Shown here: positions 727 through 13,698 of the stretch, in pieces
Numbering within the stretch: position 1 is the first letter of the stretch
How the letters are laid out: every line of letters starts with the position of its first letter
NCBI GenBank assembly: GCA_012735195.1
Contig: JAAYIC010000037.1
Location: 1 to 36,461 of the forward strand
DNA: 36,461 nt
Reading direction: 5' to 3'
From: Bacillota bacterium
GTDB taxonomy: Bacteria; Bacillota; UBA4882; UBA10575
The notes under the pieces: generated by a model
The model's input: the letters and a program-made list of their open reading frames with translations, nothing else
What the model was told of the DNA's origin: nothing
Databases searched by the model: none
Made by a program: the position numbers and the translations under genes

Positions 727-3423
727 GTGCAAATAGAGTACCTGAGCTACCGTGAGGATCTATTTTCCAGGGTGTTCACGCTGGCGGCCGGAGGCCCCAG
801 GGTCTTTATCTTTGCCGGACAGGTGAATATGGTCGAGGCCGCCCGTTCCCATGAGCCGCCTTTTCTCCAGCCGGCCTCTCTCTTCCTTACCCTCAGGGAT
901 TTCAAAGAGCGGTTTTTCCCCCCGCAGCGGTTGATTTTACGCGAAGAAAAACTGGCGGTTTTCTTCTATGAACTCCTTACCGCAGCCGAACGGGAAGAAC
1001 TGGGGATTGACGACTACTTTGACGCCATTGAACCGGCGGGCGGTTTCTTTAAACTCTACGATGAGATGAGCGAGTATGAAATCCCGGTTTTAACAGGGCT
1101 CGAGCCGTGGCAGGAGAAAAAATACGAAATTTTGCAGGCGGTTCGCCGCCGCTATCTGGCCCGTCTGGATGAATTGGGATATACCGACGCCACGCTGGCC
1201 TTTGATTTTTCCAACTTCTATGAAGAACCCCTCCGGGAATTTTCCGAGATTGTTCTGGTTAATATCATCGCCTTTACGCCTAAAGAAAAAAGGCTTCTCC
1301 GCTTCCTGGCGGACCGGGGGTTCCGGCTCCGGCTCCTTTTGCAACTCTCTCCAGAGGATTTTGATGAAGAACTGCTCTGTTTGACCGGCGTCTCCTTCCC
1401 GGCTAACCCGGGAACCGAGATCATCCTTTACCAAACCGGGGACGACCTTCTCCAATTGACAAATATCATCGCGTTATTGGAAGAAGAGGAAGAAGCCGTG
1501 GTCCTGGATGCCGCTTCCAGTAGTTCCTATCACCGGTTACTGACCGGTGGTAAAATCATGGTTGATGGGGAAACCGGTTTTCGCGAGACCAAAATCTACC
1601 GTTTTCTGACAGCCCTCTATAACCTGCTGCAGGGGGCCGTTGATCGCGCGGGTGTGCTGCAAGTGGAACTGAACAGCCTTATGCAAGCGGTCCGTCTTCC
1701 GGAGTTCCGGACCTACTACGGCCTGGATGAAACCTCCGGCGCACGCCTGCAGGAGATGGCCGGGGAAGGATATGCCTACTTTTTTGCCCCCGGAGAGTTC
1801 CGGAGCGTAATGAATGACTTGGCCCGGCTCAGGCAGGTGCAAAGCATGAAGGATCTATGTGCTTTTCTGGCCGGCCTCGACCTGAGTTTACTTAATGACA
1901 GGCATCTGGCAAAGAATATCATCAGGTATTTTGATGCCCTCCTGGAGCTCGAATCCCTGGAGGAGCTGGGGATCGTCAGCGACTGGAAAAACTACTTTTC
2001 CCGGACGGCTTTGGGCCTCCTCCGCCTGGCCCTTAACTATCTGGGTTATAAAAAAGTTAAGCCCATCCGCGACCCGGAGCTGGAGGCCACCGCCGTCAGA
2101 ATGACCGGCCTGCGGGAAGCCCCGGACCGCCCCTGGGAGACCCTGGTGATCATCAATGCCTCCCACGGCGTAATCCCCGCCGTGAGCGGAGAGAACTTCC
2201 TCCTCACCGACGGGCAGCGGGCCCGGCTCGGGTTGCCCGCGGCGCAAGAACGGAAACTCGCCGAAAAGTACGCTTTTTTCCGTCCCGTCTTCAGCAGCAA
2301 AAAGGCGGTTATTTTCAGTCTGAAAAACCTGGAAGAGAATTTAACCCCCAGTTCCTTTGTGGAGGAACTCCGCCTCCATTATGGGCTTTCCCCGGTGGAG
2401 GCTCCGGTCAAAGCCCGGCAGCTTCCGGAGGTCACCGCCGGGATCTTTGCCGTCCCGGACCGGGCGGCGGCTGCGGCCGCCCTTGAACTGGAAGATACAG
2501 CTGCCGGTCACGCGCCAGTAAACGGGCGGCCCGGCGACCAACCCGGTAGCCGGAGCCCGGCCGCGGCGGTCTCCGGCGGCGCCATGAACGGGGATACGGC
2601 CCTGGCCAATGACTGGCCGCCGGTGGAAACGGCGGATTTTCCCGGGAAACGTTTCTCTTTAAGTTATTACAAATACAAAGCCCTGAGCGAATGTCATTTT
2701 AAATTTTATCTTCAATATATCAGCGGCGTGGAAGAGATGATCACACCGGTAACAGGCTTGCACACGCGGATCCTCAGCCCTCCGCTCTTCGGCAGCCTGG
2801 TACATGAGCTTTTTGCCGAGGTCCTTAACCGCGCCGGTCCCGCCCTTGGCCTTTCACCGGAAGCGATTGACGAGATTATCAGGGACAAGCTTATTTATAG
2901 CTGGGGCCCGAAGATCAACGATTATTTCTTCAAATACTACCAGGAACTGTTCTTAAGAAAGATCAAGGAGTCGCTCCTGAACTTCCTGGCAATCCTGGGC
3001 AGACGGGGCAAGAAAAAGCCGGTCCGGGATCTGAAGAGCGAATGGCGCCCGCGGAAGACAGGAGCCCCCTTTTACCGTCATGAAATAACCGACGTCTATT
3101 TGAGCGGCCGGATTGATCTTCTTCTTGATACGGGCGACACCCTCCGGGTGGTTGATTTCAAGACCGGCGCCGGCCACTCCAGCCAGTTGGATTTCTATGC
3201 CTTACTGCTCAAAGAAGCAACCGGCACGGAAGCCCGGATCGAGAGGGAGATCTATGACGTACTGAAGGAAAAACTCCAGCCGGGGACGGTCGACGGAGAA
3301 AAAGAACTGGCGGCAATCATCCGTGAGGAACTTACGGAGCTTTTTGCCAGCCGGACCTACCAGGGAGTGGAAAAGCCCTCCCTCTGCCGTAATTGTCCTT
3401 GGCTGGATCTCTGCCGGGGGTGA
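727..3423 (+). CDS. addB: AddB-like subunit: PD-(D/E)XK exonuclease with Fe-S cluster cysteines
   Basis: 898 residues from a GTG start; the purine-rich AAGGAAGGGA ends 6 bases upstream. It is probably the nuclease/scaffold subunit of the AddAB helicase-nuclease that processes double-strand breaks for RecA. The C-terminal nuclease is clear: His693 in GSLVHELF, Asp797 in GRIDLLL, and Asp810 and Lys812 in VDFKTG. Cys656 (SECHFKFYL) plus Cys887, Cys890 and Cys896 at the extreme C-terminus reproduce the C-x2-C-x5-C spacing of the AddB 4Fe-4S cluster. It is shorter than Bacillus AddB (about 1,166 aa), and no Walker A motif is visible at the N-terminus, as in streptococcal RexB. An Ala/Gly/Pro-rich linker (about 590-635) separates the helicase-like and nuclease parts. 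Its stop codon lies within the addA ribosome-binding site. Confidence 0.88.
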   Translation: MQIEYLSYREDLFSRVFTLAAGGPRVFIFAGQVNMVEAARSHEPPFLQPASLFLTLRDFKERFFPPQRLILREEKLAVFFYELLTAAEREELGIDDYFDAIEPAGGFFKLYDEMSEYEIPVLTGLEPWQEKKYEILQAVRRRYLARLDELGYTDATLAFDFSNFYEEPLREFSEIVLVNIIAFTPKEKRLLRFLADRGFRLRLLLQLSPEDFDEELLCLTGVSFPANPGTEIILYQTGDDLLQLTNIIALLEEEEEAVVLDAASSSSYHRLLTGGKIMVDGETGFRETKIYRFLTALYNLLQGAVDRAGVLQVELNSLMQAVRLPEFRTYYGLDETSGARLQEMAGEGYAYFFAPGEFRSVMNDLARLRQVQSMKDLCAFLAGLDLSLLNDRHLAKNIIRYFDALLELESLEELGIVSDWKNYFSRTALGLLRLALNYLGYKKVKPIRDPELEATAVRMTGLREAPDRPWETLVIINASHGVIPAVSGENFLLTDGQRARLGLPAAQERKLAEKYAFFRPVFSSKKAVIFSLKNLEENLTPSSFVEELRLHYGLSPVEAPVKARQLPEVTAGIFAVPDRAAAAAALELEDTAAGHAPVNGRPGDQPGSRSPAAAVSGGAMNGDTALANDWPPVETADFPGKRFSLSYYKYKALSECHFKFYLQYISGVEEMITPVTGLHTRILSPPLFGSLVHELFAEVLNRAGPALGLSPEAIDEIIRDKLIYSWGPKINDYFFKYYQELFLRKIKESLLNFLAILGRRGKKKPVRDLKSEWRPRKTGAPFYRHEITDVYLSGRIDLLLDTGDTLRVVDFKTGAGHSSQLDFYALLLKEATGTEARIEREIYDVLKEKLQPGTVDGEKELAAIIREELTELFASRTYQGVEKPSLCRNCPWLDLCRG
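3416..3423 (+). promoter_or_regulatory. addA ribosome-binding site overlapping the addB stop
   Basis: GGGGGTGA matches the anti-Shine-Dalgarno complement GGAGGTGA at 7 of 8 positions and ends 6 bases before the addA ATG. Its last three bases are the addB stop codon, so terminating ribosomes cover the initiation site. This implies translational coupling. The closer GAGG abuts the ATG and is too near to serve. Confidence 0.7.
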
Positions 3424-3429
3424 AAGAGG

Positions 3430-6400
3430 ATGCGGAAAATTTTAAAGGCCAGCGCCGGTACGGGCAAAACCTACCGGCTTTCCCTGGAGTACGTAAACGC
3501 ACTCCTTACCGGGGAATCATTTGCGGAGATCGTGGTTATGACTTTTACCCGCAAAGCCACTGCTGAAATCAGGGAGCGGATCTTTGAACACCTGGAAGAT
3601 CTGCTCCTCCGGGGAGAAAAAAGCCCGGTCTGGCAAAACCTGCAAAAAATCCGGTCCGGTTCAGAAGCGCGTACGCCTCTGAACCGGCCGCTCTTGGAGA
3701 AAATTTACGGTACGATGCTGGAGAATAAAGACCGGCTCCATATCCATACGATCGACAGTTTTATTAATCATATCTTTAAACAGGCCGTCGCCCCCTATTT
3801 GGGAATTTACCGTTATACTATTATCGAAGAGTATAAGAATAAGGAGACGGCCGCAGAGGTCTTCAAAATGATGCTGGATAACCCGGAGGACTTTGCCCTG
3901 ATGGAGAAGTTCCTCGCCGATAACCCCGAACGGGATATCGAGCATTACCTGGGCCTCATCGATGAGATTCTCAAAAACCGGTGGAAGTTTTTATTGATTC
4001 AGCGCCGGCCCCGGGCATGCCTCCCCTCTTCCGGGCCGGCCTCCGCTCTGGATGAAACGATCCGCCTTGCCAGAAAGGCGGCCGCAGCAAAAGGCTGCCC
4101 GTGGGACGACTTTTTATGCAAGGAATTTCAAGGGCTCCTCCAGCAATACCTGGAGGATTTACCGGCCATGGACAGCCAAGCAAAAGAGGAGTTTATCCTG
4201 AAAAACCGTAACGCCTTTTTCTCCAGGCCGTTTTGGAACGGGAATAAACTCCGGGGCAAGGAATGGGAACCGGTCAAAACCGAACTGCTGGACCGGTATG
4301 AAGAATTCCGGCGGAAACTGGCCGCCTGCATCTATAACCGGGAAATGATCCCCTATGAAGAGGAGATCTTCCGGTTTTCCGACCGTATTTTCGCCCTCTA
4401 CGACCGGATTAAGCTCAAGACCAAAGAGTTCAGTCATACCGATATAAGTAATTATACTTATCTGTACCTTAACGAAGAAAAGCTGGGGTTGCTAAAAGAC
4501 GGGGAGGTAAGCTCCTACTTCTTTGAGCTGCTGGGCACCGAAGTGAAGACCCTTTTCATCGATGAGTTTCAAGATACCAGTATCCTCCAGTGGAAGATCC
4601 TCAAACCGTTACTGGAGAAGATGGTCCGTGTGATTGCCGTTGGCGATGAAAAGCAATCCATCTACGGCTGGCGCGGGGGCGAGAAGAAGCTCTTCGCCGG
4701 TCTCGACCGGATCCTTGGCGGCACAAGCGAACGGCTTACAACCTGTTACCGCAGTGAACAGGAGATCACCGGGTTTGTCAACCGCTTCTGCAGCCGCCTG
4801 GCCACTGCCGGCTGGGATTATGAGGACGTGGAACACCTGCCGGCCAAAACCGGGGGTTATGTCGAGATCCTGCTGGGCGGTACGGCCTTGAAAACCGCCA
4901 CCAATACAAAGGCCTTTCAAAGGCTTAGCCCTGAAGAGCAGGAGGCGATCGCAGAGATCAACCGGTTGGTCGTGGAGAACCTGCCGCAGGAGATCGCCAA
5001 AAAACTAAAACAGTTGCCTGTGGATTACGGCAACACCGTGATCCTTGCCCGTACCGGCGCCGACCTGGCGGAGATCGCCGCCGAACTGGATAAAGAAGGC
5101 CTGCCGTATCTCCTGGAAAGCAGGGAAAGCCTGATCGACCACCCTGCTGTAAAGCCCCTCTATTTTCTCCTCTCCTATCTGGATTCCGGTGACTACCTCG
5201 CGCTGTTGAAATTCCTCCGCAGTGACCTGGTGGGGATTAGCCGCCGGGAGCTGAAACGGTTTCTCACCGGAAAAACAGCGGTGGAAGATTTCCTGGCGGA
5301 CGCAACCCCGCAACCGGAGACGGAGGAAAAACCGGGGGCCGGTAGAGAAAATGCCGGACTGAAAAGCCTGAACCTCGGGAGGTTCTTGCCGGTTTTAACG
5401 GAGATCAAACATCTGCAGGGGTTGGCTTGGGACCGGTTGACCACCGCTGTGATCGAGCGTTTCGGCCTCATCCCTCTTTACCGGGAAAACAGCGGCGCCC
5501 TCAAGAACATCTACCAGTTTTTTAAGTTGATGCGTTCCTTCCCTTGCCTCCAGGAGTTCCTGGTCTATCTGGAAGAAAACCGGGAGAGCGAAGAGTTAAA
5601 GCAGGTGGGCGTAGAGGAGGAGAGAGCCGTTAAGCTGATGACGGTCCATAAAGCCAAAGGGCTCTCCTTTGGCACCGTCTTTTTCTACTGGAAACCCTCC
5701 GCCCGCAGCGGCAGGGACGGGGGACATGTGGAGCTCTTTGTCACTTTTGACCGAGATTTTTCTGTGGTCGAAGATTACTTGCTAACGCATGGCCGTTACC
5801 GGCAACTCTTTGACCTTTTGGGTTTGGAATATGCCGCAGAGCAAAAATACCGGGAGATGATGGAAGAGATTAATAATGTCTACGTCGCCTTAACCAGGCC
5901 GGAAAAGAACCTTTTCCTTTATATCGAAGGCCCGCGGCGCTTGTCCCCGGCGGCGCCGGGCGCCAACTGGGCCGATAGTGAGAGCTATGGCTTTTATGAG
6001 CCTGCGCTCTTGGCCGGAGCCCGGGCCGGTTCCCTCTGCGACTTAATCTCCGGCAAGAAACTGGGAAGTTTTAAGCCGGAGAAGACCGCGCCCCAGGAGA
6101 AGGAGATGGACCATCCAAAGCTACAGCCCTATTTTGCCCCGGCTGTGATCCCCGCCGCCGAAGTGGAAAGGATTAACCGGAACAAAGAGTTTGGGACGGA
6201 CCTTACCCGGCAGAAGAAAAGGAGCGACGGTTTGGCCGCCCATTTATACCTGGAGCAGATAAAAAAGAACACAGCGGCGGAAAAAGAGTACGGGCGCCGG
6301 TTGGTCTTAGCCCATTTCGGCAATATCCTGGGGCCGGAAAGAGTCGCCGCTATCACCGCCAGAGTGGAAGAGCTGCTTTCCGCCCGTCCGGAGCTTTTTG

Positions 6401-6627
6401 TCACCTCTCCCCACCGGCGGGTTTTTACCGAATACGAGATCCGGGAGGACGGCAAGGTTTACCGGGTTGACCGGCTGATCGTGGATGAAGAAAAAAAAGA
6501 GATTCTCATCCTTGATTTCAAAACCGGCGAAACCAAGGAGGAATCACAGTTGGAAGAGTACCGCCGGGTGATCCAGGCGAAAACCGGCGGCCGGTATCAG
6601 GTGAAAACCGAATTCATTGAGCTATAG
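3430..6627 (+). CDS. addA: AddA-like UvrD-family helicase/exonuclease
   Basis: 1,065 residues. This is a superfamily 1A 3'-5' helicase with a C-terminal RecB-family nuclease, forming AddAB with the upstream product. Motifs in order: Walker A ASAGTGKT with Lys13 almost at the N-terminus, Ia VMTFTRKA, II DEFQDT (378-383), III GDEKQSIYGWRGG, IV CYRSEQE, V VKLMTVHKAKGLSF, VI YVALTRPEKNL (from 818). The nuclease motif has Asp1014 (YRVDRLIV), Asp1029 and Lys1031 (DFKTG), then QLEEYRR. Because Walker A begins at residue 7 and the nearest upstream in-frame codon is a stop, the ATG start is secure. It is somewhat shorter than B. subtilis AddA (about 1,232 aa). A diverged copy of its tail occurs near 11,915. 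Confidence 0.93.
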   Translation: MRKILKASAGTGKTYRLSLEYVNALLTGESFAEIVVMTFTRKATAEIRERIFEHLEDLLLRGEKSPVWQNLQKIRSGSEARTPLNRPLLEKIYGTMLENKDRLHIHTIDSFINHIFKQAVAPYLGIYRYTIIEEYKNKETAAEVFKMMLDNPEDFALMEKFLADNPERDIEHYLGLIDEILKNRWKFLLIQRRPRACLPSSGPASALDETIRLARKAAAAKGCPWDDFLCKEFQGLLQQYLEDLPAMDSQAKEEFILKNRNAFFSRPFWNGNKLRGKEWEPVKTELLDRYEEFRRKLAACIYNREMIPYEEEIFRFSDRIFALYDRIKLKTKEFSHTDISNYTYLYLNEEKLGLLKDGEVSSYFFELLGTEVKTLFIDEFQDTSILQWKILKPLLEKMVRVIAVGDEKQSIYGWRGGEKKLFAGLDRILGGTSERLTTCYRSEQEITGFVNRFCSRLATAGWDYEDVEHLPAKTGGYVEILLGGTALKTATNTKAFQRLSPEEQEAIAEINRLVVENLPQEIAKKLKQLPVDYGNTVILARTGADLAEIAAELDKEGLPYLLESRESLIDHPAVKPLYFLLSYLDSGDYLALLKFLRSDLVGISRRELKRFLTGKTAVEDFLADATPQPETEEKPGAGRENAGLKSLNLGRFLPVLTEIKHLQGLAWDRLTTAVIERFGLIPLYRENSGALKNIYQFFKLMRSFPCLQEFLVYLEENRESEELKQVGVEEERAVKLMTVHKAKGLSFGTVFFYWKPSARSGRDGGHVELFVTFDRDFSVVEDYLLTHGRYRQLFDLLGLEYAAEQKYREMMEEINNVYVALTRPEKNLFLYIEGPRRLSPAAPGANWADSESYGFYEPALLAGARAGSLCDLISGKKLGSFKPEKTAPQEKEMDHPKLQPYFAPAVIPAAEVERINRNKEFGTDLTRQKKRSDGLAAHLYLEQIKKNTAAEKEYGRRLVLAHFGNILGPERVAAITARVEELLSARPELFVTSPHRRVFTEYEIREDGKVYRVDRLIVDEEKKEILILDFKTGETKEESQLEEYRRVIQAKTGGRYQVKTEFIEL

Positions 6628-6631
6628 TGTA

Positions 6632-6657
6632 ATGAGCTCATGTTCTCATGAGCTCAT
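6632..6657. terminator. Hairpin between convergent addA and chemoreceptor genes
   Basis: An inverted repeat ATGAGCTCATG - TTCT - CATGAGCTCAT (11-bp stem, 4-base loop) begins 5 bases after the addA stop and lies between convergent genes. It has no strong T-run on either side, so its strength as a bidirectional terminator is uncertain. Confidence 0.5.
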
Positions 6658-6684
6658 CATTTCTCATTTCCCCATCTCCTCATC

Positions 6685-8820
6685 TCATCCAGGGCGCCGC
6701 TGCTGCCTGTCACCCCGCATGGTCATGCTCAACCGGCGTTTCTCCTTGCGGCTACTGGAAATAGGAACCGGTGTTTCGTCCTCTCTCTCCCCCCGGGTCT
6801 GGAAGGTATTGATGACACTGACCAGATCACCCGCTATTTTGTGCAGGGTGTCAGCCATTCCTTTAACATGTTCCGCTCCGGCCTTTTGTTCTTCAGCCAC
6901 CGCCGTAACTTCCTCACTGGCGGCTGCGGTCTCTTCACAGATCGCATTAACACTCACGATCGAGGCGATTGCCTTGTCTTTACATTCGTCAATTCTTTTG
7001 ATGATCTCATTCATTTTCATGATGATTCTGCCGGTTTCATCCATGGCCGAGATTACATTATCGAAAGCCTCACGGGTGGAGAAAACCGCGGCCGTTTGTT
7101 CTGTCGCCATCTGTGATGCCTCCTCCGAGGTCCGGACCGACTCGCGAATCCCTTCCTGGACCCTTTTTAAGATCTCTTCGATACCCTCGGCCGCTTCCCG
7201 CGACTGCCGGCCCAATTTCCCAATCTCACTGGCCACCACCCCAAAGCCACGGCCGGCTTCTCCGGCGCGGGCCGCCTCAATCGCGGCATTTACCGCCAGG
7301 AGATGGGTCTTTTCCGTAATTTTCGTAATCGTATCCGTGATGCTCCGGATGGCCTGGATGCTCTCATTAAGCTCCTGGCCGCTCTTTTCAAATTCTTTGA
7401 TGATCCTGTCTGTTTCCTTTGTTTTTTCGACCAGAAAATCCAGGGCCTCTTTCGACTGATAACTTGCCGCCCTGGTGGTCCCGGCAATCCCCTCTACTTC
7501 TTTCGCTTCCGCAACGATAATATCAATCTCCTTGGCCAAAGCGTCGATCTGCAGGGAAGCCCTTTCCGCCTGTTTAGTCTGTTCTATAGTTCCCATGCTG
7601 ATCTCTTCCATGGTGACTGCCACCGTTTCTGCACTCTCCACTGATTGCTCCGAACTCTCTTTAAGAAAATAACTCTGCTCGGAAACCATCTTCACTATAT
7701 CTCTGGCCTTAGTAATCAGCAGGCTTAAGGCACCAATGGTTTTGTTGAGATAAGCGGCCAGTTCTCCGAATTCATCCTTTCTTGCAACGGTAATCTTTGT
7801 CCTCAAGTTGCCTTTCCCAAGTTCCCGCAGGGCATTCCCAAGATCGGCCACTGGTTTAGTGATTCTCTTAACCAAAACCACTCCGGCAATTATTGCTATC
7901 CCCAGACTGATAAGCATAAAGAAAAGTGAAGTTCTGGCCATTACCTGCACCGGCCGGTACGCTTCGGCAAGCGGTAATTCCGCCACCACCGCCCAATCGG
8001 GTTTACCCAGCGGGACCAGACTGGCAATGACCCTGGTCCCCATTATTCCAGAGCCTATATCTGTCCGGCCGGCAAAGGCCATTTTTTTGCTGACGAAGGC
8101 CGCGACATTCTCCAGGTGGCGCAGGTTCTCCCCTTTCAGCACACGGGTTATATCCCGTGAGGCCACCAGGTTGCCTATTTCATCCACTACATAGACCTGG
8201 CCTTTCTCCCCAATTTTCAGCGCGCCGATAAGGTCCCACATGAATTTCAAATTTACTTCAGCAACCAATACGCCCAAGCTGTCACCGAAGATATCGGTTA
8301 ACGGTACGGCCATGATTACCATCGGTTCAAAAGACGTCTCATCAATAATGATCGGACTGATATATTCTTCACCTGGGAACGCCCGGGTAAAAGCCTCCTG
8401 CAGGTTTTTTGTGTTCAGAACCCCGGCCACCAGTGAGGAATACCTGGATATTTTGGAGACTTCCTTTCCCTGGTTGTCTAATAAGACCAACTGGCGGAAG
8501 GAGGGTTCCTGCCCCATTAAACTGCTTAAAACAGAGCGTTGCCTTTCCTCGGGGGCTGCCAATAGATCATCGAAACCGGCGGTTACCGCCATCATGTTGA
8601 GTTTTTCCTGAATAAAGCTTTTTACTGTATTCGCCGGTTCCTTGGCCATCAATTCCTGCCGGCCAATGATAATCTCCCGGTTGTTCCGGAAAAAATTATA
8701 GATATTGAGGCCGTTGAATAGTACCAATACCACCGCCAAGAGAATTATAAAAGTCACCGTCAGGGTAGCCGCCAGGCCACGGTATCTTTTTCTCCCGGGT
8801 AAAGCGATAAGCCGGCTCAA
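6685..8820 (-). CDS. Methyl-accepting chemotaxis protein
   Basis: 711 residues from a TTG start. I prefer this TTG because AAAGGAG ends 8 bases before it; the longer frame's GTG at 8850 has no such site, and another GTG lies inside the Shine-Dalgarno. The order is a TM helix (about 16-36), an extracytoplasmic sensor of about 250 residues resembling dCache ([15 protein letters not shown]), a second TM helix (about 294-316), HAMP, then a methyl-accepting coiled-coil. The conserved hairpin tip is recognisable ([16 protein letters not shown] near residue 510). The protein would signal to CheA/CheW encoded elsewhere. It follows the ABC_sub_bind lipoprotein gene on the same strand, which suggests that the lipoprotein could present a ligand. 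The ligand is unknown. Confidence 0.93.
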
Positions 8821-8929
8821 AATCCTCACTCCTTTATGGCCTGCACACACCTGCAGGCTTTAGCCTGCTTTTTGCAGCCGTCTCTTATTATCAACTGGTA
8901 CCCCGGATTGCAACACCCCGGATTATTCA
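8821..8929 (-). other. Intercistronic leader of the chemoreceptor gene
   Basis: Between the lipoprotein stop and the chemoreceptor start there is a 6-bp hairpin (GCAGGC-TAAA-GCCTGC, 8853-8868) and a 9-bp direct repeat (CCCCGGATT on the plus strand at 8901-8909 and 8916-8924). On the minus strand the hairpin is preceded, not followed, by a homopolymer, so it is not a minus-strand terminator. It may instead affect mRNA stability or translation. Confidence 0.4.
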
Positions 8930-9952
8930 TCAATGAATGACCACCTGGGCCATGCGCAAGAGTTCCGGACTGATTTCTAACCCAAATTCCCGGGCGGCCT
9001 TATAATTAAATTCCAGAGTAATTTCGGAGGAGATCACAGGGATGCTGCCGGCCGGTGTCCCATTGAGGACCTTGTCGGCTAAAAACGCCGCCTCCTCGCC
9101 AGTGGCAATCAAATCAGCGTTGGCGCCAAAAATCGACGAGTACTCGCCTACTGTCATCAACGCTCCGCCAATCGGGATCTTGTGCTTTACCGCAAATTTG
9201 GTCAGCGCCACAAAGGGCTCGGGGGTTACGGTAAGCGGTTCGGCCACAAACATGATGGCGTCGAAAGGAGGAGCACCATTTTGCTCGTAGGCGGCAAGGA
9301 GCGTCTCGATTTCTGCAGCGTTGGCCGCCGGGGCTTCAAGTAAGGTAATTCCGGCTTTTTCAGCCACTGGAGCGAGCATCTCCATCTGATGAACGACAAT
9401 CGGGTAATCCCGTTGGTAAGGAATGAGGATACTTTTGACTTCTGGAACCAGCTCCCTCAAGACCTCCAGGCGTTTGACGGCAATATCGGGACCGGGGTAC
9501 CGCACACCGGTAATATTTCCGCCCGGTTCCCGTACGCTTTCGACCAAACCAGTCCCTTCAATATTGGAGAAGGCAAACACCACAGGGATGCCGGTCCCCT
9601 CTGTGATCTGCTTTGCCTCCATCGATGCCTCGGTGGGAAAGACAAGGATCAAATCGACTTTATCCTCAATAAACTCCCTTAGGATCCTGCGGTACTCTTC
9701 CATGTCAAAATCTATCCTTCTCAAGTCATAGAGGATATTCTCCCCTTCGATATAGCCCAATTCCGCCATTTTCTCCTGAAAACCATCGGCTATAGAGGCG
9801 ATATACTCCAAACCGCACAAAATGCCGACCTTATGTACTTTGGTTTTACTGCAACCACTGACAAGAAATGGGACCAGCAACAGAAGAAAGATGTACATGA
9901 GGACATGCATGCAATGCCTACGGCGAAAAGGATTTTTCCTGTTTAAACCCAT
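8930..9952 (-). CDS. ABC_sub_bind-family (PF04392) substrate-binding lipoprotein
   Basis: 340 residues. The N-terminus is basic, then a hydrophobic segment ends in the lipobox LVSGC with Cys34 as the lipidated residue, so the protein is anchored outside the inner membrane. The mature part matches the TrpX-like ABC_sub_bind family: KVGILCGLEYIASIADGF, MAELGYIEGENI, VDLILVFPTEAS, GIPVVFAFSN, NITGV. Members usually sit beside permease and ATPase genes, but none is nearby. The next gene downstream is a chemoreceptor, so a sensory role is plausible (inference). The start is supported by AGGAAGAGGGGG just upstream. Ligands of this family vary (aromatic amino acids in TrpX), so no substrate is assigned. 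Confidence 0.85.
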   Translation of the reverse strand: MGLNRKNPFRRRHCMHVLMYIFLLLLVPFLVSGCSKTKVHKVGILCGLEYIASIADGFQEKMAELGYIEGENILYDLRRIDFDMEEYRRILREFIEDKVDLILVFPTEASMEAKQITEGTGIPVVFAFSNIEGTGLVESVREPGGNITGVRYPGPDIAVKRLEVLRELVPEVKSILIPYQRDYPIVVHQMEMLAPVAEKAGITLLEAPAANAAEIETLLAAYEQNGAPPFDAIMFVAEPLTVTPEPFVALTKFAVKHKIPIGGALMTVGEYSSIFGANADLIATGEEAAFLADKVLNGTPAGSIPVISSEITLEFNYKAAREFGLEISPELLRMAQVVIH

Positions 9953-10208: not shown

Positions 10209-11741
10209 CTATTCCATAACCCTTTTCAAGCTGACATTATCCAGATAAACACGGCCGGTTTCTTTGCCGAAGCTAAATACGACCCGTCCGGTCGTCAATG
10301 CTTTCCCGGCCGTACCCAATACGTAATATTCGCGTTTTTCAGGGGTCACAAAAATCGAGGCTTCTCCATATATCGGGTAGTCATTGCCAATCACCGCACC
10401 GATCCCCGCGGAGAAACTGCGCGGACGGTCACTCCATGCCTCGAAGCTGAGGAGATAGCTGCATCCCTTCTGCAAAGGGATCCCGTCTTGAATCAGCTGA
10501 ATGGGCCACTCCTCAGCACCGGCGGTTTGCACATCAACAATAAATTCCTTGCCAACCGTCGTAAAAACAGCCTGGTATGGACTGCGCCAGGCCCCGTAAT
10601 TCCAACCCATGCCGCCGGCGGAAAAATCCCCGTTGGTCACCATTTCCTCGCCGGTCACCGCCGGCGGGTCGCCCGGATCCAGGACGCTTTTATCATCAGA
10701 GATGAGGGCATCCACCAGTTCCATATGGAATGCCTTGTTTCTCGGGTCATAGATCCCGAACCCGCTGCAAAACTCCCAGTAATGCCAGGAGAATCCCAGC
10801 TCTTCAAAGAGCCGGGCACAAAACGCTGTCCAACGGGCCCGCGAAGCCATATCGGCTTTGCTGTAGGCCCCGAATTCACCGATATTGACCGGGACATTAT
10901 GTTCCCGGGAATACCAGAGAACCGGCTCGAGTTCATTCCGGATCATCTGCTTCTCGACATAACTCCCGCCCCAGGTTCTTCCCAGCCAGGCCCTGGAGCC
11001 CGCCGACCATTCCGCCCCCTGGTGGGTGAATTGGAAGGGGTTGTAAAAATGGACAGTCAGGATCAGGCGGTCGTCATTGGGGAGAACCAGTTTGGAGACG
11101 GATCCGGCCCCGCCCCACTCGGCGGTCCCGATCATCACCGTCCGGCCGGGGTTCGTCTTCCTAATCACCGTCAGGGCTTCCGCCAGCAGTTCATTCCAGA
11201 GTTCGGCGGTTAGCTTATCGTGCGGCTCGTTCAAGATCTCAAAGACCAGAGCGTCCGGATGGTCTTTGTAACGCTCCGCCACCTGGGCCCACATGGCCAG
11301 GAACCGCTCCCACTCCCTATGGGGATATTTAAAGAGCTCCTCATAATGGTGGAAATTGATGATCGCGTATAAACCGTTCTTCAGGGCTTCCCCGATCGCC
11401 CAGTCCACCTTCGCAAAAAATTTCTCTTCAATTGTGTACGGTTCTTTGGTCAGGGCATAATCGGACCACCGAATCGGGATCCGCACCGACGAAAAGCCCT
11501 TTTCTTTTATGAGTTTGAAGTATTCTTCCTTAAGCTGGACTCCCCAGCTTATGCCTTTCGGGGCTTCCAATGCATTCCCCAGGTTGATACCACGACCGAG
11601 GCTCCTGTTGATCTCCGCGGCCGGCCTTGACGGCCCGTCCTGCCGCGGCGGGTGGGGTGAAAACGAATTTACCGGTAGATAAGTATAGGCCGGCAAGACA
11701 AACAAGACAAGCAAAGGAAAGAATAAAAACCTTTTCTTCAT
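10209..11741 (-). CDS. Secreted GH5 endoglucanase-type enzyme with C-terminal carbohydrate-binding module
   Basis: 510 residues from an internal ATG preceded by GGGGGG; the frame continues 12 codons upstream without a ribosome-binding site. The signal segment KKRFLFFPLLVLFVLPAY is followed by a Pro-rich linker and a GH5 (clan GH-A) barrel: GRGINLGNALEAP, VRIPIRWSDY, FHHYEE, acid/base Glu172 in ILNEPH, nucleophile Glu289 in NIGEFGAY, and WHYWEFCSGFGIYD. The last 140 residues, starting TNGDFSAGG and ending VYLDNVSL, resemble a CBM4/9-type beta-sandwich. The likely role is cleavage of cellulose or mixed-linkage beta-glucan; mannan cannot be excluded. It is a tandem paralogue of the gene upstream. 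At the aligned lipobox it has LPAY instead of LPAC, so it is probably released or membrane-tethered rather than lipidated. Confidence 0.9.
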   Translation of the reverse strand: MKKRFLFFPLLVLFVLPAYTYLPVNSFSPHPPRQDGPSRPAAEINRSLGRGINLGNALEAPKGISWGVQLKEEYFKLIKEKGFSSVRIPIRWSDYALTKEPYTIEEKFFAKVDWAIGEALKNGLYAIINFHHYEELFKYPHREWERFLAMWAQVAERYKDHPDALVFEILNEPHDKLTAELWNELLAEALTVIRKTNPGRTVMIGTAEWGGAGSVSKLVLPNDDRLILTVHFYNPFQFTHQGAEWSAGSRAWLGRTWGGSYVEKQMIRNELEPVLWYSREHNVPVNIGEFGAYSKADMASRARWTAFCARLFEELGFSWHYWEFCSGFGIYDPRNKAFHMELVDALISDDKSVLDPGDPPAVTGEEMVTNGDFSAGGMGWNYGAWRSPYQAVFTTVGKEFIVDVQTAGAEEWPIQLIQDGIPLQKGCSYLLSFEAWSDRPRSFSAGIGAVIGNDYPIYGEASIFVTPEKREYYVLGTAGKALTTGRVVFSFGKETGRVYLDNVSLKRVME

Positions 11742-11914
11742 AAAATCAACCCCCCAGGTGCTGGCAGGTTTCCCCAACCCGTTGTAATTGTCGCTGTTGC
11801 CAATTGGTCTTCCTTTTAATCAATGTAAATATTCGCCGTTTTCCTTCCCCTTCCTTTAAATCTTAGGATATTCTTTAAAAAAATCCCCAAAAAACGCCAT
11901 GGCGTACCACGGAA

Positions 11915-12019
11915 AAGACCGGCGAAACCAAGGAAGAATCAGAGTTGGAAGAATACCGCCGGCTGCAGATGATATCGGATCCGGGATACCGCTGCTACCG
12001 GGCGCCCGGCGTGGCCTGA
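11915..12019 (+). pseudogene. Remnant resembling the addA C-terminus
   Basis: Read on the plus strand, codons from 11915 give KTGETKEESELEEYRRLQ. This matches AddA residues starting at Lys1031 (KTGETKEESQLEEYRRVIQ). At DNA level I count about five mismatches in the first 54 aligned bases against 6521-6574. The similarity fades after that, and the frame stops at 12017-12019. Upstream there is no helicase sequence. It therefore looks like a short duplicated or recombined scrap of addA (or of a lost paralogue) rather than a gene. Confidence 0.7.
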
Positions 12020-12049
12020 GCAAAAAGCAACGGAGAGTGTTTTGACTAA

Positions 12050-12060
12050 CGCGCGCGCGC
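12050..12060. repeat. (CG)n tract next to the second GH5 gene
   Basis: Eleven alternating C and G bases lie immediately outside the 3' end of the second GH5 gene. Such alternating tracts can adopt Z-DNA. A twin tract lies at 14021-14032. Confidence 0.8.
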
Positions 12061-12066
12061 ATAAAC

Positions 12067-13698
12067 CTAGTCCGCTACTCTTTTCAGGCTGACATTATCC
12101 AGATAAACACGGCCGGTTTCATTGCCGAAGCTAAACACGACCCGCCCGGTCGGCAATGTTTCCTCCGCGGTGCCCAAAACATAAAACTCACGCTTTTCCT
12201 GGGTGACAAAGATCGAGGCGTTGCCGTATGACGGATAGTCTTTATATCCTCCCTTGTCTATCTCCGCCCCGAGTCCCGCAGAGAAATTGCGTGTGACGCC
12301 GGGGTCGGTCCATGCTTCAAAGCTGAGGAGATACTCGCGGCCTTTTTCCAATCGAATATTGCTTTGCAGCAGTTGAATATTCCAGCCCTCGGGGCCGGCA
12401 GTTATTACATTGACAACAAAAGCAAAATCGTTGTCAATTTTAGCTACATCCCACTCAGCCTGGTAGCGGTCTTTATCCCAAACCCCGAAAGTCCATCCTC
12501 CGGGGGCGGAGGGGCCGGCGCCGCCGGAGAAACCCCCGTTGGTCAATATCTCCTTGCCGGTTGCCGGCGGTTCCCCCAGTCTCAAGACGTCGGTGTTATC
12601 AGAGATAAGGGCGTTGACCAGTTCATCGTGGAATTTTTTCTCCTCCGGCTTATAGACCCCGAAGCCACTGCAAAACTCCCAGTAATGCCAAGAAAAACCC
12701 ATCTCTTCAAAGAGCCGGGCGCAAAACTCGGTCCAGTGCGCCCGGGAGTCCATATCGGCTTTTTTATAGGCGCCAAACTCACCGATATTGACCGGGATAT
12801 TATTGGTACAGGAGTAGTAGTAGACCGGGTAAAGCTCATCGATTAGTATCCGCTTATCAAAGAAACTCCCGTTCCAGCGGGTTCCCAACCAGGCATAGGG
12901 GTCGGAACCGCTGACCCAGTCAGCGCCCTGGTGGGTAAATTGAAAAGGACTGTAGAAATGGACGGTCAGGATCAAGTTCTCGTCGCCGGGGAATTCCAGT
13001 TTGGAAAGGCCTCCAACCCCGCCCCACTCGGCGGTCCCGATCATCACCATCCGGTTGGGGTTCGTCTCTCTAATCACCGCCAGGGCTTCCTTAAGCAGTT
13101 GATTCCAGAGTTCAGCAGTCAGCCCATTGTGGGGTTCATTTAAGATCTCAAATACCAGATCTTCCGGGTAACCTTGGTAACGCGCCGCCACCTGTTCCCA
13201 CATGGCCAAGAACCTGTCCCACTCCCCAAGGGGATTTGTGAAGATCTCGTCATAATGGTGGAAATTGATGATCGCGCATAAATCATTCTCCAGTGCTTGC
13301 CGGATCGCCCAGTCTACATGATCTTCAAAAAACTTCTGGTCAATTGTGTAAGGAGCGCCGGTTTGGGCGTAAGCCGACCATCTGATGGGAATCCGTACCG
13401 AAGAGAAGCCTTTTTCTTTGATCATGCTGAAATATTCCTCTTTAAGAACAACTTCCCACTCGCCAATGGCCGGCGCCTCCAAAGCGTTACCCAGGTTAAT
13501 ACCGCGACCCAATTTTTTGTTGAACTCCGCCGCCGGGCCCGACGGCTTGTCTAGCAGGGGTGCGCTCCAAGGGGGAGTCGTTGGGTAGGTCCTCTCATTC
13601 TTTGGCCGGTAACGGCAGGCCGGCAGAAAGAGCAGGACCAGTAAGAGTAAAAAAACGGCTGCATGCGCCCGTACGTATGTCTTCTTTCTCTTCATCAT
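12067..13698 (-). CDS. GH5 endoglucanase-type lipoprotein with C-terminal carbohydrate-binding module
   Basis: 543 residues; GGAGGT lies 7 bases before the first of two adjacent ATG codons. The signal peptide ends in lipobox FLPAC (Cys28), so the enzyme is probably lipid-anchored. A Pro/Ser linker follows, then a GH5 barrel: GRGINLGNALEAP, VRIPIRWSAY, FHHYDE, acid/base Glu188 in ILNEPH, and nucleophile Glu307 in NIGEFGAY. The C-terminal beta-sandwich (TNGGFSGG to VYLDNVSLKRV) resembles CBM4/9. It is closely similar along its full length to the neighbouring GH5 gene, with small insertions around SGSDPYAWLG and in the CBM, so the pair arose by tandem duplication. Substrate specificity cannot be read from the sequence; beta-1,4-glucan is most likely. 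Confidence 0.92.
   Translation of the reverse strand: MMKRKKTYVRAHAAVFLLLLVLLFLPACRYRPKNERTYPTTPPWSAPLLDKPSGPAAEFNKKLGRGINLGNALEAPAIGEWEVVLKEEYFSMIKEKGFSSVRIPIRWSAYAQTGAPYTIDQKFFEDHVDWAIRQALENDLCAIINFHHYDEIFTNPLGEWDRFLAMWEQVAARYQGYPEDLVFEILNEPHNGLTAELWNQLLKEALAVIRETNPNRMVMIGTAEWGGVGGLSKLEFPGDENLILTVHFYSPFQFTHQGADWVSGSDPYAWLGTRWNGSFFDKRILIDELYPVYYYSCTNNIPVNIGEFGAYKKADMDSRAHWTEFCARLFEEMGFSWHYWEFCSGFGVYKPEEKKFHDELVNALISDNTDVLRLGEPPATGKEILTNGGFSGGAGPSAPGGWTFGVWDKDRYQAEWDVAKIDNDFAFVVNVITAGPEGWNIQLLQSNIRLEKGREYLLSFEAWTDPGVTRNFSAGLGAEIDKGGYKDYPSYGNASIFVTQEKREFYVLGTAEETLPTGRVVFSFGNETGRVYLDNVSLKRVAD

What the first reader, a model, noticed from the sequence alone, without database searches (positions are those of the whole stretch)
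11915..12019. Duplicated scrap of the addA 3' end between two cellulase genes
The bases from 11915 encode KTGETKEESELEEYRRLQ, about 90% identical at DNA level over 54 bases to addA at 6521-6574, 5.4 kb away and on the same strand. It has no upstream helicase sequence. Such a scrap next to a tandem duplication suggests a past recombination that joined DNA following an addA copy to the cellulase locus.
Basis: seen in the sequence. Interest (0 to 1): 0.55.

Follow-up and report, generated by a model that had tools for sequence, protein, structure and literature searches.

The report
Tiny decayed copy of helicase gene
A 51-base leftover copy of the end of a DNA-repair helicase gene sits between two cellulase genes, in a stretch that the two held relatives lack; it looks like ordinary genomic debris rather than a working part.

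Summary
Bases 11915-11965 match addA 6520-6570 at 46 of 51 positions, same strand, E 2.3e-13 in the own genome; no third place matches at E <= 0.001. No upstream helicase sequence is seen.

The copy lies in about 200 bases, 11862-12066, between two GH5 cellulase genes. Both other held genomes of the genus have the same gene order and cellulase pair but lack this stretch. So the pair looks older than the genus split, and the scrap's divergence looks younger than the pair's. That the scrap marks the junction of the tandem duplication is not supported, though not excluded.

The DNA after the scrap (11974-12023) may continue into the sequence that follows addA; this was found after the fact and has a competing match.

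Best explanation: a non-functional remnant of a short ectopic copy of the addA 3' region, made in or near this species' lineage and since eroded. It is ordinary; interest is low. Misassembly cannot be excluded without reads.

The parts
11915..11965 (+). 51-nt copy of the 3' part of addA (codes KTGETKEESELEEYRRL in the addA frame)
6520..6570 (+). source segment inside addA, 18 codons before its stop, at and beyond the edge of a weak PD-(D/E)XK match (residues 927-1049)
11862..12066 (.). stretch of about 200 nt present here and absent from both held genus relatives (edges uncertain by a few bases)
11974..12023 (+). possible continuation: weak collinear similarity to 6682-6732, just after addA (3' end of the convergent MCP gene); not proven
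   Evidence: competing match to 9483-9503
11897..11912 (-). terminator-like hairpin with T tract downstream of cellulase B; number of such sites in the region not clearly above shuffles
3430..6627 (+). addA-like (RecB-like) helicase gene
6685..8850 (-). methyl-accepting chemotaxis protein gene, convergent with addA
10209..11741 (-). GH5 cellulase gene A with CBM_4_9 domain
12067..13698 (-). GH5 cellulase gene B with CBM_4_9 domain

Best explanation
A non-functional remnant of a short ectopic duplication. DNA from the 3' end of addA, perhaps with some of what follows it, was copied or joined into the intergenic space between the two cellulase genes, 5.4 kb away on the same strand, in or near the lineage of this species. 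It has since eroded to a recognisable 51 bases. The copy, its place and its absence from the two relatives are shown; the direction (insertion here rather than loss in both relatives) and the joining process (for example repair of a break with capture of nearby DNA; Ku is encoded) are inferred.
For: 46-of-51 match, E 2.3e-13, no third place in the genome at E <= 0.001. Both genus relatives keep synteny and the cellulase pair but lack the stretch; in G001 the sequence matching up to 11860 abuts the sequence matching from 12064. Scrap divergence 5 of 51 is of the order expected after the species split (fourfold differences 0.22-0.25 between addA orthologues, two branches) and below that of the cellulase paralogues (0.37-0.44). 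The addA frame is open for only 46 codons; no Pfam hit for its 34 codons, no Rfam match, no fold above shuffles (z 0.26). Ku gene in 3 of 3 genus genomes.
Against: With only two relatives, loss in both cannot be excluded. The scrap shares one codon form only with G002's addA (AAG) and one only with the window's (TCA), so its branch point is unclear. The candidate MCP-end continuation, if true, is more diverged (35 of 50) and would suggest an older event. Short ORFs of 48 aa (+) and 68 aa (-) span the scrap; they were not tested beyond the absence of the stretch in the relatives. Misassembly is untested.
Confidence: 0.7

Rival explanations
1. Relic of the tandem duplication itself: a unit of addA 3' end, MCP gene, binding-protein gene and cellulase gene was duplicated head to tail; the extra MCP and binding-protein genes were then lost, leaving the addA 3' end (and perhaps a trace of the lost genes) between the two cellulases. 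Order and orientation fit.
For: Same strand, and convergent orientation to cellulase B as predicted. Weak collinear similarity of 11974-12023 to the sequence after addA (0 of 1000 controls with two scorings). In 37 aligned columns, at the 7 sites where window and G002 differ the scrap has one of the two bases at 7 of 7 (4 window, 3 G002; counted by hand). The competing flank match, 9483-9503 in the binding-protein gene (2 of 1000 controls over 6500-9952), would also lie in the unit this model needs, so it speaks for the model too. Upstream of the cellulases, window A vs G001 B and G001 A vs G001 B are reached by 7 and 12 of 200 shuffles.
Against: Both relatives have the pair without the scrap. 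Paralogue fourfold divergence 0.37-0.44; halved for one branch (my arithmetic) about 0.22-0.27; at 0.25, 5 or fewer differences of 51 have probability 0.006. Upstream regions of cellulases A and B of the window itself show no similarity (128 of 200 shuffles as good). The two flank matches overlap, so at least one is chance; the flank does not match the corresponding place of G001.
Confidence: 0.2
2. Assembly artefact: the assembler joined a short stray piece into the intergenic space of this contig.
For: The genome is a fragmented assembly of 131 contigs; the stretch is absent from both relatives.
Against: The scrap differs from the own addA by 5 of 51 and from the addA of each relative by 6 of 51, so it is not a copy of any addA seen here; the stretch lies inside a 36-kb contig with conserved order on both sides.
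Confidence: 0.07
3. A working element: transcribed from cellulase B on the minus strand, the 3' untranslated RNA would carry a 51-nt sequence complementary to addA mRNA and could repress it.
For: Minus-strand terminator-like hairpin at 11912-11897 directly after the antisense stretch; predicted duplex -88.8 kcal/mol against a mean of -26.9 in 200 shuffles.
Against: The duplex follows from the duplication itself; the stretch is absent from the relatives; fold z 0.26; terminator-like sites in 11600-12200: 3 found against 1.3 (sd 1.1) in shuffles.
Confidence: 0.02

Closest known systems
Intergenic gene remnants (pseudogene fragments) of bacterial genomes
   Same: Short, decayed piece of a gene in an intergenic space (broken genes in prokaryotes are the subject of PMC9336565 and PMC2374718, of which only the search listing and the start of the abstract were seen)
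   Different: The intact parent gene is 5.4 kb away, so it is a duplicate scrap, not the ruin of the only copy
Ectopic capture of nearby DNA at a repaired break (end joining with Ku)
   Same: Short piece of nearby DNA inside a stretch the relatives lack; Ku gene present
   Different: No junction signature was found; LigD was not searched; the process is inferred, and its existence in bacteria rests here on recall
Remnants of a partial (segmental) tandem duplication
   Same: Same strand, next to a tandem paralogue pair, order as such a model predicts
   Different: Relatives have the pair without the remnant, and the scrap is less diverged than the pair

Membership tests
Gene remnant / pseudogene fragment | Significant similarity to an intact gene over part of its length | tested here: met
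   46 of 51, E 2.3e-13
Gene remnant / pseudogene fragment | Lacks the rest of the gene and cannot code for its product | tested here: met
   No upstream addA similarity; addA frame open for 46 codons, no Pfam hit for its 34 codons from 11915 to the stop
Gene remnant / pseudogene fragment | Not conserved between related genomes | tested here: met
   Absent in 2 of 2 other genus genomes held
Junction relic of the cellulase tandem duplication | As old as the pair | tested here: inconclusive
   5 of 51 against paralogue fourfold 0.37-0.44; absent where the pair is present; small sample
Junction relic of the cellulase tandem duplication | Continues into the DNA that follows addA | tested here: inconclusive
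   0 of 1000 controls with two scorings, 47 of 1000 with a third; overlapping competing match in the binding-protein gene
Functional addA paralogue | Helicase motifs and full nuclease domain | tested here: not met
   Only 51 nt match
Regulatory antisense RNA | Transcribed and affects addA | not testable with these tools
   No expression data

The most novel reading that the evidence does not exclude
The cellulase B transcript ends at the hairpin 11912-11897 and carries, in its 3' untranslated part, a 51-nt antisense stretch to addA made from a captured piece of addA itself; a new trans-acting antisense RNA would thus have arisen from a gene scrap and would tie a repair nuclease to cellulase expression.
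Probability: 0.02. Interest if true: 0.55.

Novelty: new member of a known kind. Interest (0 to 1): 0.12.

Why it matters
As debris it matters little: it records one short duplication in a Bacillota species whose two held relatives are metagenome-assembled genomes. If more species of the genus became available, it would help to date rearrangements at this locus. In a sample of 352,542 bases of this genome (window included, about 17%) compared with itself, it was the only repeat of up to 400 bases that joins an intergenic piece to a predicted gene; scraps whose parent lies outside the sample would have been missed, so this is only a hint that they are uncommon.

Tried and rejected
Donor from a more distant addA: the AddA C-terminus was sought in 29 genomes of the class (3 of 29, all in this genus) and 398 of the phylum (12 of 398). 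By eye the tail of the scrap resembles none of the seven C-termini read correctly (window, G002 and five distant ones). In that script the longest frame of L031, L037, L039, L041 and L042 was not addA, so these five were not compared there; L031 (G001) was read correctly, the other four were not compared. The scrap peptide was sought in 61 genomes (8 of 61 with a match at E <= 1: itself and addA in this genus, otherwise E 0.07 or worse), in plasmids and in phages (no match at E <= 1).

Mobile element: one search shows no repeat or inverted repeat of 30 nt or more at the edges of the stretch; shorter target duplications were not searched for. RNA element: no Rfam match at E <= 1 in 11600-12300, fold z 0.26. 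Small ORFs 11899-12045 (+, 48 aa) and 11856-12062 (-, 68 aa) exist; the relatives lack the stretch.

Extension of homology to the right: it looked clear (only its own place among 718 windows reaches the score with +5/-4 and +1/-1, but 25 of 718 with +2/-3; G001's corresponding place does not match, G002's does in part). A profile test with both relatives then ranked a 21-base match in the binding-protein gene (9483-9503) higher (30.5 vs 26.5; best reverse-strand score 26.4; reversed sequence 20.4; six shuffles up to 22.8). Both overlap in the flank, so at least one is chance. It was one of four flank comparisons made together (2 of 200 shuffles there), so its significance is overstated by selection.

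Upstream regions of the two cellulases: 9 pairwise comparisons, best 7 and 12 of 200 shuffles, both with G001's B, none convincing. No cellulase tree was built; the age of the pair rests on identities and synteny.

Outgroup order: G005 has one related cellulase (60%); of 12 window proteins tested on the 18 kb fetched around it only the two cellulases match, at the same place. A search for the MCP gene in the family hit 16 of 16 genomes, outside the genus at 47% or less, and was not taken further. The older order at this place stays unknown.

Full report
Setting. The window is contig C71 of an assembly of 2.13 Mb in 131 contigs. Two other genomes of the genus are held (3 genomes in all). Their contigs have the lengths (46762 and 29679) of DUNX01000050.1 and JAAYGG010000021.1, both titled MAG, Bacillota bacterium, and I take G001 and G002 to be these. 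That the window is Bacillota too follows from the shared genus; that it is a MAG is not shown.

Observation. 11915-11965 repeats 6520-6570 with 46 of 51 identical bases. In the own genome these are the only two places at E <= 0.001. The five differences give three synonymous codons and two conservative changes; the chance of at least 3 of 5 synonymous is about 0.10. No addA sequence is seen upstream of 11915.

Genes. 727-3423 holds a PD-(D/E)XK nuclease domain and stands where an AddB would (the AddB name is from position and size, not from a family match). 3430-6627 is an AddA- or RecB-like helicase (Pfam UvrD domains; NCBIfam hits all below the curated cut-offs, best NF010485 with 280 of 650 bits, TIGR02784 addA_alphas 130 of 861). 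Then come a chemotaxis receptor and an ABC substrate-binding protein, both on the minus strand, and two GH5 cellulases with CBM_4_9 domains, also minus.

Relatives. Both keep this order. In G001 the sequence matching up to 11860 is directly followed by that matching from 12064; in G002 104 bases stand between the matches ending at 11754 and starting at 12067, and most of these match neither of the other genomes. Neither relative has the scrap; the best match to it in each is addA itself, 88%. Cellulase A orthologues are 84-85% and B orthologues 73-75% identical as proteins; A against B is 62-72% over nine pairs. With the shared place this makes the pair older than the genus split (inference; no tree was built). 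One irregularity: B of G001 is nearly as close to the A proteins (70-72%) as to the B proteins (73-75%), which may reflect gene conversion.

Age. Fourfold-site differences are 0.22-0.25 between addA orthologues and 0.37-0.44 between the cellulase paralogues within a genome. The scrap shows 5 of 51. If it has evolved without constraint it fits an origin around or after the species split better than one with the cellulase duplication, but the sample is small. Within the 51 bases the scrap shares a TCA codon only with the window's addA and an AAG codon only with G002's, so its branch point is not fixed.

Continuation to the right. 11974-12023 aligns to 6682-6732, just downstream of addA, with 35 of 50 matches and one gap. 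With +5/-4 scoring 0 of 1000 GC-matched 101-mers of this genome do as well, with a three-species profile over 6551-6800 0 of 1000, with +2/-3 47 of 1000. Against 4448 windows of the genome sample, 2, 9 and 2 reach the score under three gap settings. At 7 of 7 sites where window and G002 differ the scrap carries one of the two bases (by hand); G001's corresponding place does not match. Against this, the profile ranks a 21-base match at 9483-9503, in the binding-protein gene, higher; it is reached by 6 of 1000 controls over 0.7-20.4 kb and 2 of 1000 over 6500-9952. The best reverse-strand score (26.4) equals that of the MCP end (26.5). Either match, if true, would lie in the unit that the tandem-duplication rival needs, so this part of the evidence leans towards the rival. 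I treat the continuation as possible, not shown.

Function. No sign: absent from the relatives, no Rfam match, no fold above shuffles, no Pfam match. The minus strand has a terminator-like site at 11912-11897; 3 such sites were found in 11600-12200 against a shuffle mean of 1.3. A cellulase B transcript ending there would be antisense to addA; the predicted duplex is strong, but this follows from the duplication.

Background. In 352,542 bases of this genome (window and 20 stretches, about 17% of it) compared with itself, 4 repeat pairs of up to 400 bases involve intergenic DNA, two of them from one tandem array; only this one joins an intergenic piece to a predicted gene. Ku is encoded in 3 of 3 genus genomes, so end joining with capture of nearby DNA is possible; that is inference, and LigD was not searched.

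Literature. Searches gave listings and starts of abstracts only; no paper was opened. They were used only to name ordinary kinds (broken genes in prokaryotes; bacterial end joining). No claim is made that such scraps are or are not in print.

Verdict. A true but ordinary gene scrap.

Noticed in passing
window 3430-6627: The AddA-like helicase (C-terminal 300 aa) was found in 3 of 29 class genomes, all in this genus, and in 12 of 398 phylum genomes, the nine outside the genus at 34-46% identity, which hints at lateral gain of this addAB pair by the genus.
   Followed up: partly
window about 6627-6677: Right after the addA stop the window has an ATGAGCTCAT inverted repeat within about 50 bases that the alignment shows as absent at the same place in both relatives.
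   Followed up: no
L011 (G001), cellulase B: The G001 B cellulase is nearly as close to A proteins (70-72%) as to B proteins (73-75%), a hint of gene conversion between the tandem copies.
   Followed up: partly
L012:11278-11383 (G002): The space between the cellulases in G002 holds about 100 bases that mostly match neither the window's genome nor G001, so this space seems to turn over fast in the genus.
   Followed up: partly
L055 (own genome C52) 4240-4503: Tandem repeat outside predicted genes with a 79-base offset, copies 92-95% identical.
   Followed up: no
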